Of a DNA stretch of 64,000 nucleotides, positions 45,122-52,264 are shown in pieces. Numbering within the stretch: the first letter of the stretch is position 1; each line of letters starts with the position of its first letter. The position numbers and the translations under genes are program-made. Origin of the DNA: Steroidobacteraceae bacterium (lineage in GTDB: Bacteria > Pseudomonadota > Gammaproteobacteria > Steroidobacterales > Steroidobacteraceae); NCBI GenBank assembly GCA_029266835.1, contig JAQSWD010000005.1, positions 1-64,000 of the forward strand, given 5' to 3'. The notes below the pieces were generated by a model, which worked only from the letters and a program-made list of their open reading frames with translations, was not told where the DNA came from and ran no database searches.

Positions 45122-45153
45122 CGGCCCAAAAAGCGTAGCTTTTTGCGCGGCCG
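45122..45153 (+). terminator. Candidate terminator after terC
   Basis: CGGCC, then AAAAAGC-GTA-GCTTTTT, then GGCCG: nested inverted repeats with T run on the 3' arm, immediately after the terC stop and before the permease. The inner stem is A/T-rich, so strength is uncertain; the mirrored A and T runs would work in both directions. Confidence 0.5.
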
Positions 45154-45196
45154 GGTCCGTACACTGCGGCCACTACAAAAATTGCGGGGTCTTCCG

Positions 45197-47005
45197 ATGG
45201 GTTGGCGTACCAAGTCCATTGCTCAGGTCCAGACCGAATTCGAACGTGGCGAGCTGAAGCGCACGCTGGGTCCATGGCATCTGGTGCTGTTCGGCATCGG
45301 TTGCATCATCGGTGCGGGCATCTTCGTGCGTACCGGCACGGCGGCCGCGCAGTACGCAGGGCCGGCGGTCATCATCTCTTTCATCATCGCCGGCGTGGTC
45401 TGCGCACTCGCGGGCCTGTGTTATGCCGAGCTGGCGTCGATGCTGCCGGTGTCCGGATCCGCATACACGTACTCGTACACCACCGTCGGTGAGTTCGGCG
45501 CCTGGATCATGGGCGCGCTGTTGCTCCTCGAATATGCCCTCGCCGCGTCGGTGGTCGCGGTCGGGTGGTCGGGGTATGCGGTCAGTCTGCTGCATGACAT
45601 AGGAGCCGATCTTCCGGCGCAGCTCACGCAGCCCTGGGGTCATCTCGTGGTGACGGCGTTGACGAGCATCGGTCTCACCGATCCCACGGTCAGTCTCAAT
45701 GGTGTATCCGCGACGCTGGCTGATGGCAGCACGGTCCAGTTCTTCTCGCAGGGTTCGGCCACCATCCAGGGAGCGTTCACCACCAGCATCGGGCAGTACG
45801 ACATGGTGAAGCCGGCCGCTGATGGCGCCTATGCGCTGATCAATGCGCTGGACATCCCGGTGCCCGATGCGGCGACCGCGACGCTCGCCGAGACCACCAA
45901 GGTCATGGACCCGGCGACGCGCGCGCTTCGCGAGCTGGCCACCGGCACCGTGGTCAACGTGCCCGCGGGTGCGGTGGTGCAGTTGCCAGCTAACACCGCG
46001 GTGGCATTGCCCGCCGGCGCCGTCGTCACGGCGCTGTTCAACCTTCCTGCGGTGTTCATCACGCTCTCGGTCACGGTACTGCTGGTGCTCGGTGTGTCCG
46101 AATCCGCAACCGTGAACAACATCATCGTGGCCATCAAGGTGACGGTGATCCTGTTGTTCATCGCGGTGGGCGCGTTCTTCATCAATTCGGCCAATTGGCA
46201 ACCCTTCATTCCCGAACCCACGGGCGTGGAGAATCAGTTCGGTTGGGACGGCATCATCCGTGCCGCGACTATTGTCTTCTTTGCCTACATCGGCTTCGAG
46301 GCGGTCTCGACCGCGGGCCAGGAGGCCAAGAATCCCAAGAAGGACATGCCGATCGGCATCCTGGGGTCGCTGGTCGTCTGCACCATTCTCTACATGCTGA
46401 CGGCGGCGGTGCTCACCGGCGTGGTGTCCTTCACCAAGCTCAACGTGGCGGCGCCTGTCGCCACCGCGGTGGACACATTCGGTCCGGAGTGGAGCTGGCT
46501 GGCCAAGCTCATCAAGATTGGCGCGATCGCGGGATTGTCATCCGTGGTGCTGGTGCTGATGTTCGGCCAGACGCGCGTGTTTTATTCCATGTCACGCGAT
46601 GGGCTGCTGCCAAAGTCCCTGGGCAAGGTGCATCCCAAGTTCAAGACGCCCTGGATCAACACGATCATCGTGGGTCTCGTGGTCTCGGCCTTCGCAGCGG
46701 TGTACGACATCAACCGCCTGGGTGACCTGACATCGGTGGGCACGCTGGTTGCATTCGGACTGGTGTGCTTCTCGGTCATCTGGCTTCGCTACCAGCGTCC
46801 GGACCTGGACAGGCATTTCAAGGTGCCTTTCTTCCCGATCCTGCCGGGGCTCGGTGTGCTGGCCTGTTTCGCGCTGGCCTACATCGGGGTGGAGCAGAAC
46901 ATCCGCATCTGGTTCATGTGGTTCATCCTCATCGCCATCGCGGTGTACTTCATCTACCCGTACTGGGTCAGCCCGTTGCGCAACAAGGCCAGGGAAGCCG
47001 GCTGA
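45197..47005 (+). CDS. APC-family amino acid permease with a large extra loop
   Basis: 602 aa, longer than the usual 460-500. Start at 45197 (MGWRTKSIAQVQTEF) with GCGGGGTC upstream. The core matches cationic amino acid transporter/YfnA-type permeases: VLFGIGCIIGAGIFVRTGTAA, AYIGFEAVSTAGQEAKNP, MFGQTRVFYSMSRDGLLP. Between the third helix (ends near 132) and FNLPAVFITLSVTVLLVLG (from 281) lies an insertion of roughly 115-130 residues that is hydrophilic and ends in a three-fold repeat (NVPAGAVVQ, LPANTAVA, LPAGAVVT). It probably faces outside the membrane. Amino-acid specificity unknown. Confidence 0.9.
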   Translation: MGWRTKSIAQVQTEFERGELKRTLGPWHLVLFGIGCIIGAGIFVRTGTAAAQYAGPAVIISFIIAGVVCALAGLCYAELASMLPVSGSAYTYSYTTVGEFGAWIMGALLLLEYALAASVVAVGWSGYAVSLLHDIGADLPAQLTQPWGHLVVTALTSIGLTDPTVSLNGVSATLADGSTVQFFSQGSATIQGAFTTSIGQYDMVKPAADGAYALINALDIPVPDAATATLAETTKVMDPATRALRELATGTVVNVPAGAVVQLPANTAVALPAGAVVTALFNLPAVFITLSVTVLLVLGVSESATVNNIIVAIKVTVILLFIAVGAFFINSANWQPFIPEPTGVENQFGWDGIIRAATIVFFAYIGFEAVSTAGQEAKNPKKDMPIGILGSLVVCTILYMLTAAVLTGVVSFTKLNVAAPVATAVDTFGPEWSWLAKLIKIGAIAGLSSVVLVLMFGQTRVFYSMSRDGLLPKSLGKVHPKFKTPWINTIIVGLVVSAFAAVYDINRLGDLTSVGTLVAFGLVCFSVIWLRYQRPDLDRHFKVPFFPILPGLGVLACFALAYIGVEQNIRIWFMWFILIAIAVYFIYPYWVSPLRNKAREAG

Positions 47006-47911: not shown

Positions 47912-48691
47912 ATGATACAGGCCGTGCCGCTGACCGCCATTCGCATCGTGCTCGTCGAACCCTCGCATCCGGGAAACATCGGGGCGGTGGCTCGCGCCAT
48001 GAAAAACATGGGTTTGTCCGACCTCGTCCTGGTACGCCCGAAGGCTTATCCGCATCCGGACGCCAGCGCGCGCGCTTCGGGCGCCGGCGACCTTCTGGAC
48101 CGGGCGCGCGTCGTGGACAGCGTGACCGACGCAGTGGCCGATGTGGGCTTCGTGGCGGCCACCACCTCGCGTCCACGCGACCAGAATTTCCGCGCGCTGG
48201 ACCTGCATGATGCCGCCGCGCGCATCTTCGAGATGAGCCAGCGCGGCCCGGCGGCCGTGTTGTTCGGCGCCGAGCGCACCGGCCTCACCAACGAAGAGCT
48301 GGCGCTGGCGCACCTGCTGATCCGCATCCCCGCGAACCCTGACTACCCGTCGCTGAATCTCGCGATGGCCGTGCAACTCACCACCTACGAGCTGTTCCGG
48401 GCCGCGGGATCGCCGGCCAGTTCGCGTCCGTTGTCCGAGCCCGTGGTGCCGCTGGCGCCCGGCGCCGACATGGAGCGCTTCTACACCCACCTGCAGCAGG
48501 TCATGGATGAGGTGGACTTCAAGGACCGCACCGTGGGCGGCACGCACCTGATGACGCGCATCCGCCGGCTGTTCCAGCGCTGCGAGATGGACCAGAACGA
48601 GGTCAACATCCTGCGCGGCATCCTCACGTCGGTGCAGCAGAAGCGGATCCGCGCCGGAGGCGCGCGCAAGAACGAGGCGCCGGGCGAGTGA
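47912..48691 (+). CDS. trmJ: tRNA (cytidine/uridine-2'-O-)-methyltransferase TrmJ
   Basis: 259 aa SPOUT methyltransferase modifying position 32 of tRNA. N-terminal IRIVLVEPSHPGNIGAVARA, then FGAERTGLTNEEL and PSLNLAMAVQLTTYELF form the trefoil knot SAM site. Start ATG 47912. Overlaps the iscS-fusion gene by 4 bp. In E. coli it is next to iscR, which is absent here, so the desulfurase follows trmJ directly. Confidence 0.96.
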   Translation: MIQAVPLTAIRIVLVEPSHPGNIGAVARAMKNMGLSDLVLVRPKAYPHPDASARASGAGDLLDRARVVDSVTDAVADVGFVAATTSRPRDQNFRALDLHDAAARIFEMSQRGPAAVLFGAERTGLTNEELALAHLLIRIPANPDYPSLNLAMAVQLTTYELFRAAGSPASSRPLSEPVVPLAPGADMERFYTHLQQVMDEVDFKDRTVGGTHLMTRIRRLFQRCEMDQNEVNILRGILTSVQQKRIRAGGARKNEAPGE

Positions 48692-50301
48692 CTATCTACC
48701 TGGACTACGCGGCCACCACGCCCGTGGATCCGGGCGTGGCGGAGGCCATGGTCGCCGTGCTCAACTCGCCCACGTTGCAGGGTAACTCCGCCTCGGCCAC
48801 GCACGGCGCGGGGCATTCGGCGAGCCAGGTCGTGGAGATGGGCCGCATCGCGGTGGCCCGGCTCATCGGCACCCGCGCGCGCCAGATCATCTTCACTTCC
48901 GGCGCCACCGAGTCCAACAACCTGGCCATCCAGGGTGTGGCCTCCGCGGCGCGGCGCATCGCCGAGGCCTTGCCCGCCACCGCGCGCAAACAGCCGCATT
49001 TCGTCAGTGCGCGCACCGAACACAGATCCGTGCTCGACACGTTCAGGGAGCTGGAGCGGCAGGGCGCCGATGTCACCTGGATCGAGCCCGATGAATGGGG
49101 CCGCGTACCGCCCGAGGCCGTGCGCACGGCGCTGCGTGACGAAACGCTGCTGGTGTCGATCATGCATGCCAACAACGAGCTGGGCTGCATCAACGACATC
49201 GCCGGCATCGCCGCGGTGTGTCGGGAGCGCGGCGTGCTGCTGCATTCCGACGCCAGCCAGAGCGCCGGCAAGATCGCTTGCGACGTGGGAGTGCTCGGCG
49301 TCGATTTCCTTTCGTTCACTGCGCACAAGATTCACGGACCCAAGGGCATCGGCGCGTTGTACGTGCGCGAGAGCGCTCGGCCGAAAATCGCGCCCATCCA
49401 GTTCGGCGGTGGCCATGAACGCGGATTGCGCTCCGGCACGCTGGCCACGCACCAGGTCGCGGGCTTCGGCCGGGCGGCGGTAATCGCCGCCGAGCGGCGT
49501 GCCGCCGATGCCGCGTACGCGCATGCCTTGCGCGCCAGGCTGACTCGCGATCTCGAGGCGATCCCCGGCGCGCTCTTCAACACGCGGCCGGGCGATGAAT
49601 CGCTGCCCGGCATCCTCAACGTTTCATTCGAGGGAGTGGAAGGAGAAAGCCTGGTCGTCGCTATCCCGGACGTTGCCCTGTCGACCGGGTCGGCGTGCAG
49701 CTCGGCCACGCGCGAGCCCAGTTATGTGTTGCGCGCGCTGGGCCGCGATACCGAGCTGGCGCAAAGTTCGCTCCGGCTGAGTTTCGGGCGCTTCAGCACC
49801 GAAGCGGAGATCGACCACACCGCCAGGGCCATCCGCCGCGAGGTCTCGCGACTGCGCCAGATCGCGGGTGGACAGGGCATTCCGGGCGCGTCTACCGAGG
49901 AACCGGACAGTGACGGCCCCACCTCCCAGGCTTCCGGCCTGTCGTCGGTGCTCGTGCCGTATTTTCGGAAGGCGCCACGTCCCCCGGAATACCCCGAAGG
50001 CGGCTCGCTGCCGGCCAGCGTCCGCCACGGCAAGGCCGGGCGCAGGTGCGATGGGGCCGAGGTGCGCTTCGAACTGCATATCGAGGGCGGGTTTGTGAAA
50101 AGCGCCCGTTCCACTGCGTACGGATGCCCCCATACTCTGGGCGTGACGGCCTGGTTATGTGAGGTTCTCGTAGGCCGCCGGCTCGACGCCGGCATCCCCG
50201 AAACCCCCGCAGAATGGGCCGCGCATTTCGAGGTGCCGGCCGAGAAACTTGGCCGGTTGTTGATCGTCGAAGATGCATTACGCGCGGCATTTGCCGGGTA
50301 G
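48688..50301 (+). CDS. iscS: Cysteine desulfurase fused to a degenerate IscU-like domain
   Basis: 537 aa; IscS is about 404. Residues 1-395 are a complete desulfurase: PLP lysine K214 ([11 protein letters not shown]), PLP-stacking H112 region (TEHRSVLDT) and active-site C337 in [15 protein letters not shown]. Residues about 421-537 resemble Isc[16 protein letters not shown] matches the HYENPRNVG start, C454 aligns with C37, AYGC480 with TYGC63, and [11 protein letters not shown] with ILAEDAIKAAI. The third ligand C106 aligns with R523, H105 with G522, and the HscA motif LPPVK reads VPAEK. iscA follows after 37 bp. Overlaps trmJ by GTGA. Confidence 0.9.
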
Positions 50302-50338: not shown

Positions 50339-50662
50339 ATGGCCATTTCTCTTACACCCGCCGCCGCCGAACGCGTCAAGGGCTTCATCGCCGCCCGAGG
50401 CAAGGGCCTGGGCCTGCGCCTGGGTGTCCGCAAGACCGGCTGCTCGGGGTTTGCCTACGTCGTGAATTACGCCGATGACAGCCAGCCCAGGGACCTCGTG
50501 TTCGAGGATCAGGGCGTTAAGGTGTTCGTGGACCCCGAAAGCCTGCCGCTGATCAACGGCACCACGGTCGACTTCGTCAAACAGGGCCTCAACGAGGCCT
50601 TCCGCTTCCATAACCCCAACATCAAGGGCGAGTGCGGCTGCGGGGAGAGCTTTTCGGTTTAA
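50339..50662 (+). CDS. iscA: Iron-sulfur cluster assembly protein IscA
   Basis: 107 aa A-type carrier. The three conserved cysteines are in KTGCSGFAY (C35) and GECGCGESF (C99, C101). N-terminal [16 protein letters not shown] is typical. ATG 50339 is used; the upstream frame overlaps the desulfurase fusion. It is the only other isc gene left in this locus. Confidence 0.94.
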
Positions 50663-50732: not shown

Positions 50733-51161
50733 ATGGCGCTCGAGCGCACCTTTTCGATCATCAAGCCCGACGGCGTTGCCCGCAATCTCATCGGCCAGGT
50801 CCTGAGCCGTTTCGAGAAGGCCGGCCTCAAGGTCGTGGCCGCCCGCATGCAGCATCTCTCCCAGCGTGACGCCGAAGGTTTCTATGCCGTGCACGCCGCG
50901 CGTCCGTTCTTCAAGGACCTCGTGAAGTACATGACCTCCGGTCCCGTGCTGCTGCAGGTGCTCGAAGGTGAGAACGCCATCGCGAAGAACCGCGAGATCA
51001 TGGGCGCCACCGATCCGAAGAAGGCCGCCCCCGGCACGATCCGCGCCGATTTCGCCGAGAGCATCGAGGCGAACACCGTGCACGGTTCGGACGCCCCGGA
51101 AACCGCGGCTACCGAGATCGCGTACTTCTTCCGCTCGACGGAGATCTGCCCGCGCGGCTGA
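50733..51161 (+). CDS. ndk: Nucleoside diphosphate kinase
   Basis: 142 aa. Transfers the gamma-phosphate between NTPs through a phosphohistidine, here in [20 protein letters not shown] (cited residues around 115-134; the histidine is in VHGSD). The N-terminal [18 protein letters not shown] is diagnostic. One-base overlap with rlmN (TGATG). Same order as in E. coli, where ndk precedes rlmN. Confidence 0.98.
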
Positions 51162-52264
51162 TGCCTCGCGACAGAACAGACGGCATGTCTGCCGCAGCCG
51201 AAACTCCGCGCACGAATCTCCTCGGTCTCCCGAAGGCCGAGCTGGAGTCGTACGTCGCGGAGCTGGGCAGCAAACCTTTCCGCGCGCGCCAGGTGATGAA
51301 CTGGCTGTACAAGCGCGGCGAGGGCGACATCGCCAGCATGACGGACCTGGCCAAGGACTTCCGCGCGCAGCTGGTGCAGCGCGCGGAAGTCAAACTACCC
51401 GAGATCGTGAAGACCCAGGTGGCCTCCGACGGCACGCGCAAGTGGCTGCTGTCGGGCGAGGAAGACCGCGGCACGTTGTGCATCTCCTCGCAGGTGGGCT
51501 GCGTGCTCGACTGCTCGTTCTGCTCCACGGCGCAGCAGGGCTTCAACCGCAACCTCACCACCGCCGAGATCGTCGGCCAGGTGTGGCTGGCGAACAAGGA
51601 GCTCGGCTGGAAGGTAGGTGACGATCGCATCATCACCAACATCGTGCTCATGGGCATGGGTGAGCCACTGGCGAACTTCCGCAACGTCATCCCGGCCATC
51701 AAGATCTTCCTCGACGACCTGGGCTTCGACATCTCGCGCCGCCGCGTCACCTTGAGCACCTCGGGTCTCGTGCCGCAGATCTACAAGCTGGCCGAGGAAG
51801 TGAATTGCGCGCTGGCCGTGTCGCTGCACGCGCCCAACGACGATCTGCGCAACGAACTCGTGCCCATCAACCGCAAGCACAACATCGCCGAGCTGCTCGA
51901 GGCCTGCTGGCACTACCTCGACGAACAGAACGGCCGCAGCGTCACGTTCGAATACGTGATGCTCGACGGCGTCAACGACCAGCCCGATCACGCCCGCCAG
52001 CTCGCCAAACTACTGCGCGGCAAGCCGGCCAAGCTCAACCTCATTCCGTTCAATCCTTTTCCGGGAACGCAATATCGCCGCTCGCCGCAGGCGGCCATCG
52101 AGCGCTTCCGGGATGAGCTCATGCAGCGTGATCTCATCGTGACCATTCGCAAGACGCGCGGCGACGACATCGATGCGGCCTGCGGGCAACTCGCGGGCCA
52201 GGTCACCGATCGCACGGTGGTGCGGCTGGGTTCCAAAACATTTGGATTGCAGGTGCGCGCATGA
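51161..52264 (+). CDS. rlmN: Dual-specificity 23S rRNA/tRNA adenine-C2 methyltransferase RlmN
   Basis: 367 aa radical SAM enzyme. Cluster motif CVLDCSFC, GMGEPLANF, and the methyl-transfer cysteine near the C-terminus in DIDAACGQLAG with its partner in CISSQVGC. An internal ATG at residue 9 (MSAAAETPR) is an alternative start. Overlaps pilW by 4 bp. Confidence 0.97.
   Translation: MPRDRTDGMSAAAETPRTNLLGLPKAELESYVAELGSKPFRARQVMNWLYKRGEGDIASMTDLAKDFRAQLVQRAEVKLPEIVKTQVASDGTRKWLLSGEEDRGTLCISSQVGCVLDCSFCSTAQQGFNRNLTTAEIVGQVWLANKELGWKVGDDRIITNIVLMGMGEPLANFRNVIPAIKIFLDDLGFDISRRRVTLSTSGLVPQIYKLAEEVNCALAVSLHAPNDDLRNELVPINRKHNIAELLEACWHYLDEQNGRSVTFEYVMLDGVNDQPDHARQLAKLLRGKPAKLNLIPFNPFPGTQYRRSPQAAIERFRDELMQRDLIVTIRKTRGDDIDAACGQLAGQVTDRTVVRLGSKTFGLQVRA

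What the first reader, a model, noticed from the sequence alone, without database searches (positions are those of the whole stretch)
48688..50301. Cysteine desulfurase fused to an IscU-like domain that has lost its third ligand and its HscA-binding motif
The gene reads as one 537-aa frame: a complete IscS followed by about 117 residues that align end to end with IscU. C37 and C63 equivalents (C454, C480) are kept, but C106 is replaced by arginine, H105 by glycine, the C37-G-D motif by C-D-G, and the LPPVK motif recognised by HscA reads VPAEK. A scaffold without its third cysteine and chaperone site would not work as normal IscU. It may be a sulfur relay, a desulfurase activator that mimics the IscS-IscU complex, or a sulfur-delivery enzyme for another path.
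Basis: partly seen in the sequence, partly recalled or inferred. Interest (0 to 1): 0.8.

Follow-up and report, generated by a model that had tools for sequence, protein, structure and literature searches.

The report
Cysteine desulfurase fused to ligand-less IscU
In a group of bacteria that build iron-sulfur clusters with another machine (SUF), the old scaffold protein IscU has lost its cluster-binding residues but is still kept next to, and often fused onto, the sulfur-mobilising enzyme IscS, which suggests that IscU can have a second job as a partner of IscS.

Summary
Confirmed in the main and extended. The 537-aa frame is an IscS with intact catalytic residues followed by an IscU-fold domain (predicted structure, Z 14.1 to E. 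coli IscU) that lacks most cluster ligands. One detail is wrong: C454 is not the C37 equivalent, so only one of three cysteines (C63 = C480) remains. It is no oddity or sequencing error: all 52 genomes (own included) with an IscS hit carry this 'IscU*' beside it; of 56 genomes read it is fused in 20, separate in 36. Of 119 distinct IscU*, 116 keep C63, 0 C37, 2 C106; 109 keep K103, whose charge reversal stops E. coli IscU binding IscS. SUF is found in 58 of 59 genomes, HscA over cut-off in 0, TusA in 11. The domain is under purifying selection, and fusion arose or was lost repeatedly. Best reading: a leftover of the ISC operon after SUF took over, kept as a non-scaffold IscS subunit, probably a one-cysteine persulfide acceptor for a non-Fe-S path. 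Against the relay: 15 of 20 hand-picked homologs from other families lack C63 too. Mechanism untested; new variant of a known kind.

The parts
48688..50301 (+). IscS-IscU* fusion gene, 537 aa, GTG start inside the trmJ stop (GTGA overlap)
   Evidence: aligned with 45 other fused proteins
48688..49866 (+). IscS-type cysteine desulfurase domain (residues 1-393)
   Evidence: Aminotran_5 7.8e-74; PRK14012 1e-136; fold match 3lvm_B Z 54.2
49327..49329 (+). K214, PLP lysine (E. coli K206)
   Evidence: invariant in 46 fused rows; K206 column 114 K of 115, one X
49696..49698 (+). C337, persulfide cysteine (E. coli C328)
   Evidence: invariant in 46 fused rows; 114 of 115 rows
49867..49950 (+). linker, residues 394-421 (lower confidence, block means of pLDDT 64-79 over residues 391-420)
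49951..50298 (+). IscU* domain, residues 422-537, ligand-less IscU fold
   Evidence: NifU_N 22.4 bits for the part alone; model pLDDT 90.9, pTM 0.82; Z 14.1 to 3lvl_A
50047..50049 (+). C454, not the C37 equivalent (aligns with A36), not conserved
50125..50127 (+). C480, equivalent of IscU C63, in a GCPH motif
   Evidence: 116 of 119 distinct IscU*
50233..50247 (+). VPAEK in place of the HscA-binding LPPVK; the lysine (K103 equivalent, K520) is kept
   Evidence: K103 109 of 119, P101 11 of 119; V102 0 of 119
50251..50256 (+). G522-R523 in place of H105-C106
   Evidence: G at H105 107 of 119, R at C106 92 of 119
50339..50662 (+). iscA, A-type carrier, 107 aa, downstream neighbour
   Evidence: TIGR02011 IscA 153.2 bits, cut-off 150.6; PRK09502 157.3, cut-off 181 not reached (longer ORF); Fe-S_biosyn 76.8 bits
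47762..48691 (+). trmJ-like SpoU methylase ORF, upstream neighbour
   Evidence: SpoU_methylase 7e-30; found in 77 of 80 relatives' loci
50733..51161 (+). ndk, conserved neighbour (named by its match to E. coli ndk)
   Evidence: in 74 of 80 loci
51161..52264 (+). rlmN, conserved neighbour (named by its match to E. coli rlmN)
   Evidence: in 73 of 80 loci

Best explanation
IscU* is the IscU of a former ISC operon. After SUF took over cluster assembly, iscR, hscB, hscA, fdx and iscX were lost from the locus, and IscU lost its cluster ligands and chaperone motif but stayed as a dedicated partner of IscS at the old IscU docking site. It is often fused to the IscS C-terminus, the end at which IscU docks in E. 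coli. Proposed mechanism: the desulfurase loads C337 with a persulfide; the docked domain presents its only conserved cysteine, C480, as a SufE/TusA-like acceptor that protects the sulfur and passes it to a non-Fe-S path (tRNA thiolation by MnmA is the leading candidate, because TusA is usually not found). Shown by computation: architecture, predicted fold, ligand loss, locus, SUF present, HscA not found, selection, retained docking residues. Inferred: descent from an ISC operon and persistent docking. Hypothesis: sulfur relay through C480 and its target.
For: Same locus in relatives: of 80 loci trmJ 77, iscS 80, IscU* 80, iscA 77, and no hit for hscA, hscB, fdx, iscX or iscR (these loci were fetched by IscU*, so its presence there is by selection). 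Found by IscS instead: 52 of 52 genomes with an IscS hit have it there. C63 116 of 119, C37 0, C106 2, K103 109. K103E stops IscU binding IscS in E. coli (PMC2854127, passages); an E. coli IscS C328 - IscU C63 disulfide is cited there. IscS keeps catalytic residues and much of the IscU patch (E311 113 of 115, L313 114 of 115, R381 110 of 114) while the TusA-stacking W45 (26 of 26 canonical rows) is R in 83 and W in 0 of 112. TusA 11 of 59 genomes (8 over cut-off) against 111 of 143 in the class; MnmA 52 of 59. SUF 58 of 59, HscA over cut-off 0 of 59. Domain dN/dS 0.09-0.45 in all close pairs. Fused/split label needs 10 changes on the IscS tree, at least 7 by starred branches. The N-terminal helix, needed for binding in E. 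coli, is matched from the start in 67 of 69 split proteins; the match starts beyond position 20 in 22 of 50 fused and 0 of 69 split (the profile was built from the split ones, which favours them). Fusion model pTM 0.91.
Against: C63 is not universal: 3 of 119 in the set lack it (L145, L146, L161), and 15 of 20 hand-picked IscU homologs from other families of the class lack it, 12 of 20 lacking all three cysteines. TusA loss does not track the cysteine: the 11 relatives with TusA also have IscU*, and 11 of 20 outsiders have TusA. C63 is not the only acceptor in IscU: in Azotobacter the IscS link was to C37, and no single cysteine change abolished transfer (cited in PMC2854127). The last part of E. 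coli's IscU-docking helix (IscS 386-391) is not conserved, and E347 is variable. In E. coli IscU alone raises IscS activity only slightly (PMC11302665, section 5), a weak precedent for an activator role. The C337-C480 geometry was not measured. B. subtilis YrvO serves MnmA without a relay (PMC5372745, passages), so TusA loss needs no substitute.
Confidence: 0.5

Rival explanations
1. Cysteine-independent subunit: IscU* only docks on IscS to stabilise it, tune its activity, or gate access of other acceptors (a pseudo-scaffold); the cysteine is incidental or lineage-specific.
For: Of 20 hand-picked homologs in other families, 15 lack C63 and 12 lack all three cysteines, yet 18 of 20 lie directly after iscS; the other two stand at contig ends where iscS is cut or missing. 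K103 is retained in the order (109 of 119). In E. coli IscU and TusA compete for IscS and change its activity (PMC11302665, abstract and section 5).
Against: Within the window's order C63 is as conserved as neighbouring fixed residues (116 of 119; P64 118, A113 119, D112 116) and sits in a new GCP[HY] motif (H65 96, Y 13 of 119). K103 is K in only 8 of the 20 outsiders, R in 4.
Confidence: 0.3
2. Still a cluster scaffold, or part of a minimal IscS-IscU*-IscA assembly path, with the missing ligands supplied by IscS or IscA.
For: iscA lies in 77 of 80 loci; of the other three, two end at the contig end and one is L107. The predicted fold is IscU.
Against: C37 and D39 in 0, H105 in 1 and C106 in 2 of 119, chaperone motif lost, HscA over cut-off 0 of 59, SUF 58 of 59 with a SufU in the own SUF operon.
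Confidence: 0.05
3. Decaying remnant without function.
For: Low scores in four of 56 genomes (G046, G047, G048, G017) and long branches; a broader pattern of ligand loss in HscA-less genomes.
Against: Purifying selection in all close pairs (dN/dS 0.09-0.45); 52 of 52 genomes with IscS keep it; repeated fusion to the enzyme.
Confidence: 0.05
4. Sulfur donor into SUF itself (a SufE/SufU substitute feeding SufBCD).
For: SUF is the only complete cluster machine found; SufE-like CsdE shares the fold more distantly (Z 7.2).
Against: The own SUF operon has SufS and a SufU with a CGD motif and further cysteines.
Confidence: 0.1

Closest known systems
IscU (ISC scaffold; TIGR01999, PF01592)
   Same: Fold (Z 14.1 to 3lvl_A), position after iscS and before iscA as in E. 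coli, K103, C63
   Different: No C37, C106, D39, H105 or LPPVK in the window's protein; 22.7 bits against a cut-off of 192.4; HscA over cut-off in 0 of 59 genomes; often fused to IscS
SufE / CsdE sulfur acceptors
   Same: Single-cysteine acceptor of a desulfurase with a distantly similar fold (CsdE 5nq6_B Z 7.2); the functional analogy is recalled
   Different: Partner of an IscS-like enzyme, not SufS/CsdA; acceptor cysteine at a different place of the fold (recalled)
SufU
   Same: IscU fold (B. subtilis 6jzv_A Z 10.9); accepts sulfur from a desulfurase (recalled)
   Different: The own genome has a separate SufU in its SUF operon; no CGD motif or third cysteine in IscU*
TusA relay (E. coli IscS-TusA-TusBCDE-MnmA)
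   Same: Proposed role: passing persulfide from IscS to tRNA thiolation
   Different: Different fold and another site on IscS (PMC2854127, passages); TusA is found in only 11 of 59 genomes here
Lone IscS of Mycobacterium tuberculosis beside a complete SUF
   Same: ISC operon cut down in a SUF-based organism, desulfurase kept (PMC10848736, start of abstract in a search listing)
   Different: There only iscS remains; here iscS, IscU* and iscA remain and IscS is often fused to IscU*

Membership tests
IscU scaffold | IscU/NifU_N fold | tested here: met
   AlphaFold2 model of residues 422-537, Z 14.1 (2.3 A over 112) to E. coli IscU 3lvl_A and 15.8 to human ISCU2 6nzu_D
IscU scaffold | Three cysteine cluster ligands C37, C63, C106 | tested here: not met
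   Window: D, C, R. Family: C37 0, C63 116, C106 2 of 119
IscU scaffold | D39 and H105 of the ligand site | tested here: not met
   D39 0 of 119; H105 1 of 119
IscU scaffold | HscA motif LPPVK and HscA in the genome | tested here: not met
   VPAEK; P101 11 of 119; V102 0 of 119; HscA over cut-off 0 of 59
IscU scaffold | NCBIfam TIGR01999 curated cut-off | tested here: not met
   22.7 against 192.4 bits
IscU scaffold | Pfam NifU_N gathering score | tested here: inconclusive
   22.4 against 22 bits for the part alone, but 19.1 in the whole protein
IscU scaffold | K103, needed for binding IscS in E. coli | tested here: met
   K520; K in 109, R in 7 of 119; K103E no binding (PMC2854127)
IscU scaffold | Assembles a [2Fe-2S] cluster | not testable with these tools
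   needs purified protein
IscS-type cysteine desulfurase | PLP lysine, catalytic histidine, persulfide cysteine | tested here: met
   K206 114 of 115 (one X), H104 113 of 113, C328 114 of 115 rows; K214 and C337 in the window
IscS-type cysteine desulfurase | NCBIfam IscS equivalog cut-off | tested here: not met
   456.1 against 548 and 445.9 against 643.2 bits, though the best two of the NCBIfam matches
SufU | SufU ligand cysteines and SUF operon location | tested here: not met
   Not in the SUF operon, which holds its own SufU; first and third cysteines missing (their role in SufU is recalled)
SufE/CsdE | One acceptor cysteine paired with SufS/CsdA | tested here: inconclusive
   One conserved cysteine, but beside IscS; fold similarity weak (Z 7.2)

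The most novel reading that the evidence does not exclude
IscU has a second, scaffold-independent role as a subunit of IscS. SUF-based gammaproteobacteria are a natural separation-of-function experiment: they dropped the cluster ligands and chaperone motif yet kept, and repeatedly fused, the protein to IscS; in the window's order it has become a one-cysteine persulfide relay that replaces TusA in tRNA thiolation.
Probability: 0.35. Interest if true: 0.82.

Novelty: new variant of a known kind. Interest (0 to 1): 0.64.

Why it matters
IscU is usually treated as a cluster scaffold. Here the scaffold chemistry has been removed by evolution while the protein, its lysine for IscS binding and one cysteine were mostly kept wherever IscS was found, so the part of IscU function that is not cluster assembly becomes testable directly. 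It could also explain how SUF-based bacteria without TusA get sulfur from IscS to other uses, and it gives a single-chain model of a desulfurase with its acceptor.

Tried and rejected
Sequencing error or chance join of two genes: rejected, same fusion in a single-contig sister genome and many others. C454 as C37: rejected. Function as a cluster scaffold: unlikely (see rivals). Simple story 'C63 is kept because TusA is lost': not borne out, since cysteine state and TusA do not track each other outside the order. Fisher values printed treat genomes as independent, which they are not, and are not used. Of 59 genomes (own included), 4 gave no match to the domain at first (G001, G003, G046, G048); G046 and G048 have diverged copies beside iscS, 42.0 and 35.7 bits; G001 and G003 (93% and 67% complete) gave no IscS hit either. 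Five more genomes without an IscS hit (G010, G035, G037, G052, G053) do have the domain. G008 and G021 have a second IscS-like hit whose surroundings I did not look at.

Rows dropped: one search used 68 of 74 representatives (six very diverged or odd rows left out); one search holds the window plus 45 of the 46 fused references listed (L145 left out), and one search had skipped three short ones; one search used 110 of 119 plus E. coli; one search counts 56 genomes (G052 left out, no iscS in its stretch); one search used 115 of 119, 26 of 30 canonical, 18 of 20 outsiders. The 20 outsiders were picked by hand as short or low-scoring IscU-like matches, so they are no random sample. The genome-contig scan kept 80 of 91 relatives and used one peptide pattern that contains GCP, which favours rows with C63: 63 of the 119 distinct rows come from it, 56 from the whole-genome sample, which was found by protein similarity or by IscS; the three rows without C63 are all of the latter.

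The whole-fusion structure search showed IscS-like chains only, so docking of the second domain could not be compared with 3LVL. pTM 0.91 suggests a defined placement, but this is an inference. Papers: ten searches listed no paper that, by title, start of abstract or passages seen, reports an IscS-IscU fusion or a ligand-less IscU; listings were capped and only open-licence PMC text is covered. The passages shown of PMC2682760 and PMC8593673 mention no such form.

Full report
What is there. Window 48688-50301 (+) is one frame of 537 aa. Residues 1-393 are an IscS-type desulfurase with the PLP lysine K214 and persulfide cysteine C337. Residues 422-537 fold as IscU: AlphaFold2 on an alignment of 68 sequences gives pLDDT 90.9 and pTM 0.82, and the model matches human ISCU2 (Z 15.8, 1.8 A over 112) and E. 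coli IscU (Z 14.1, 2.3 A over 112) above SufU (about 11) and CsdE (7.2). By sequence the domain only just reaches Pfam NifU_N when scanned alone (22.4 against 22 bits; 19.1 in the whole protein) and is far below the IscU equivalog cut-off (22.7 against 192.4).

It is a family. The domain was found in 55 of 59 genomes, own included. All 52 genomes with an IscS hit carry it directly at that iscS: 50 by the places, and G046 and G048 by reading the locus. G001 and G003 show neither in the assembly. Of 56 genomes read, it is fused in 20 and separate in 36. Among 119 distinct sequences from these genomes and from 80 loci of the species collection, C63 is kept in 116, C37 in 0, C106 in 2, D39 in 0; G64 became P in 118 and S65 became H in 96 (Y in 13); K103 is K in 109 and R in 7; H105 became G in 107 and C106 became R in 92. 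The collection scan used a pattern containing GCP, so it is biased towards C63; the whole-genome rows are not. Record titles include Steroidobacteraceae, Woeseiaceae, Nevskiales, Chromatiales, Thioalkalivibrio sp. XN8 and unclassified proteobacterial MAGs.

Where it sits. The order suhB(-) trmJ iscS IscU* iscA ndk rlmN pilW rodZ hisS recurs: of 80 loci, trmJ 77, iscA 77, ndk 74, rlmN 73, with no hit for iscR, hscB, hscA, fdx or iscX. E. coli has iscR-iscS-iscU-iscA-hscB-hscA-fdx-iscX, and about 12 kb away ndk-rlmN-rodZ-ispG-hisS. So this looks like the ISC locus cut down. SufB/D-type proteins are in 58 of 59 genomes; the own SUF operon holds sufB, sufC, sufD, sufS, SufU and an IscR-like gene. 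HscA is over cut-off in 0 of 59 (I take the matches near 630 bits to be DnaK). In a class-wide sample of 143 genomes, 51 of 58 with canonical IscU over cut-off have an HscA match at E 1e-205 or better, and 0 of the 20 hand-picked genomes with degenerate IscU do.

It is under selection. dN/dS (Nei-Gojobori) of the domain lies between 0.09 and 0.45 in all pairs with at least 70% identity that the script compared, in most of them somewhat above that of IscS (values with dS over 1 are rough). Fused and separate states need 10 changes on the IscS tree, at least 7 forced by well-supported branches (quick tree, SH-aLRT only). Repeated fusion of the same two neighbours speaks for a physical partnership.

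It still looks built to dock on IscS. In E. coli, IscU touches IscS with Y3, Y11, G38, V40, K42, K59-G64 and K103; K103E and removal of residues 1-12 stop binding; the contacts on IscS are E309-A316, E347, the end of helix 11 and the C-terminal helix (PMC2854127, passages). In IscU*, K103 is kept and position 61 is Y, F or W in 100 of 119. The N-terminal part is matched from the start in 67 of 69 separate proteins, but the match starts beyond position 20 in 22 of 50 fused ones (the profile was built from the separate ones), as if the tether made it dispensable. On IscS, E309-L313, L380 and R381 are kept and 386-391 is not; W45, which stacks on TusA, is W in 26 of 26 canonical rows but R in 83 and W in 0 of 112 here. 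TusA matches are found in 11 of 59 genomes (8 over cut-off) against 111 of 143 genomes of the class, while MnmA is found in 52 of 59.

How it most likely works. C63 is the IscU cysteine found disulfide-linked to C328 of IscS in E. coli; in Azotobacter the link was to C37, and no single cysteine is indispensable for transfer (both cited in PMC2854127). Its near-invariance here, when the other ligands are gone, and the new GCP[HY] motif point to chemistry rather than structure: a persulfide acceptor held at the enzyme. The receiver is unknown; MnmA is the leading candidate because TusA is usually not found and IscS has lost the TusA residue. This step is a hypothesis. YrvO of B. subtilis shows that a desulfurase can serve MnmA without any relay (PMC5372745, passages).

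Evidence that cuts the other way. In 20 IscU homologs from 20 other families of the class, picked because they score low as IscU, C37 is lost in 20, C63 in 15, C106 in 16, and all three in 12; 18 of 20 lie directly after iscS, and two stand at contig ends. K103 is K in 8 and R in 4 of these 20, and 11 of the 20 genomes have TusA. In the window's order three sequences lost C63 (L145, L146, L161). Hence the cysteine relay may be specific to this order, and the older shared property may be a cysteine-independent role on IscS. The canonical IscU rows form one supported side of the tree (98), with IscU* and outsiders on the other (short alignment, several long branches that meet), which does not settle how often the ligands were lost.

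Relation to known systems. It works like a SufE- or TusA-type acceptor if the hypothesis holds, but it is not a member of either family; by descent it is IscU, yet it fails the defining ligand and chaperone tests of the IscU scaffold. The nearest known situation is M. tuberculosis, where the ISC operon is reduced to iscS beside a full SUF (PMC10848736, start of abstract in a search listing). Ten text searches listed no paper seen to describe an IscS-IscU fusion or a ligand-less IscU, in open-licence PMC papers only.

Verdict. Real, widespread and under selection; the scaffold role is very likely gone; an IscS-bound accessory role is likely (about 0.8 for relay and pseudo-subunit together); the one-cysteine relay is the single most likely mechanism (0.5).

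Noticed in passing
L229-L248 (G097, G129, G195, G086, G108, G098, G071, G120, G117, G084, G095, G160, G175, G116, G081, G122, G157, G186, G062, G077): In other families of the class the isc locus carries IscU homologs with still more ligand loss: C37 0, C63 5, C106 4 of 20, none of the three in 12 of 20.
   Followed up: partly
genomes G000-G058: TusA is not found in most of the order (11 of 59 with a match, 8 over cut-off) although MnmA is found in 52 of 59.
   Followed up: partly
L141 (G000:C128:1-14190): SUF operon of the own genome: IscR-like gene, sufB, sufC, sufD, sufS and a SufU; no sufE hit in the stretch.
   Followed up: partly
window 45143-47005 (+): Amino acid permease (AA_permease_2) of 620 aa with a long insert rich in VPAG/LPAN-like repeats, by eye around residues 180-300 of the frame.
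   Followed up: no
L117 and L134: Separate IscU* of G050 and G042 keep a cysteine at the C106 position as well as C63 and branch near the base of the IscS tree, possible intermediates of ligand loss.
   Followed up: partly
L107: Nevskiales MAG locus with iscS and IscU* but no iscA hit before ndk; the other two of 80 loci without iscA end at their contig ends.
   Followed up: no
L235 (G071): Outsider IscU homolog without any of the three cysteines in a 569-aa open frame close after an iscS match, possibly a fusion in another family.
   Followed up: no
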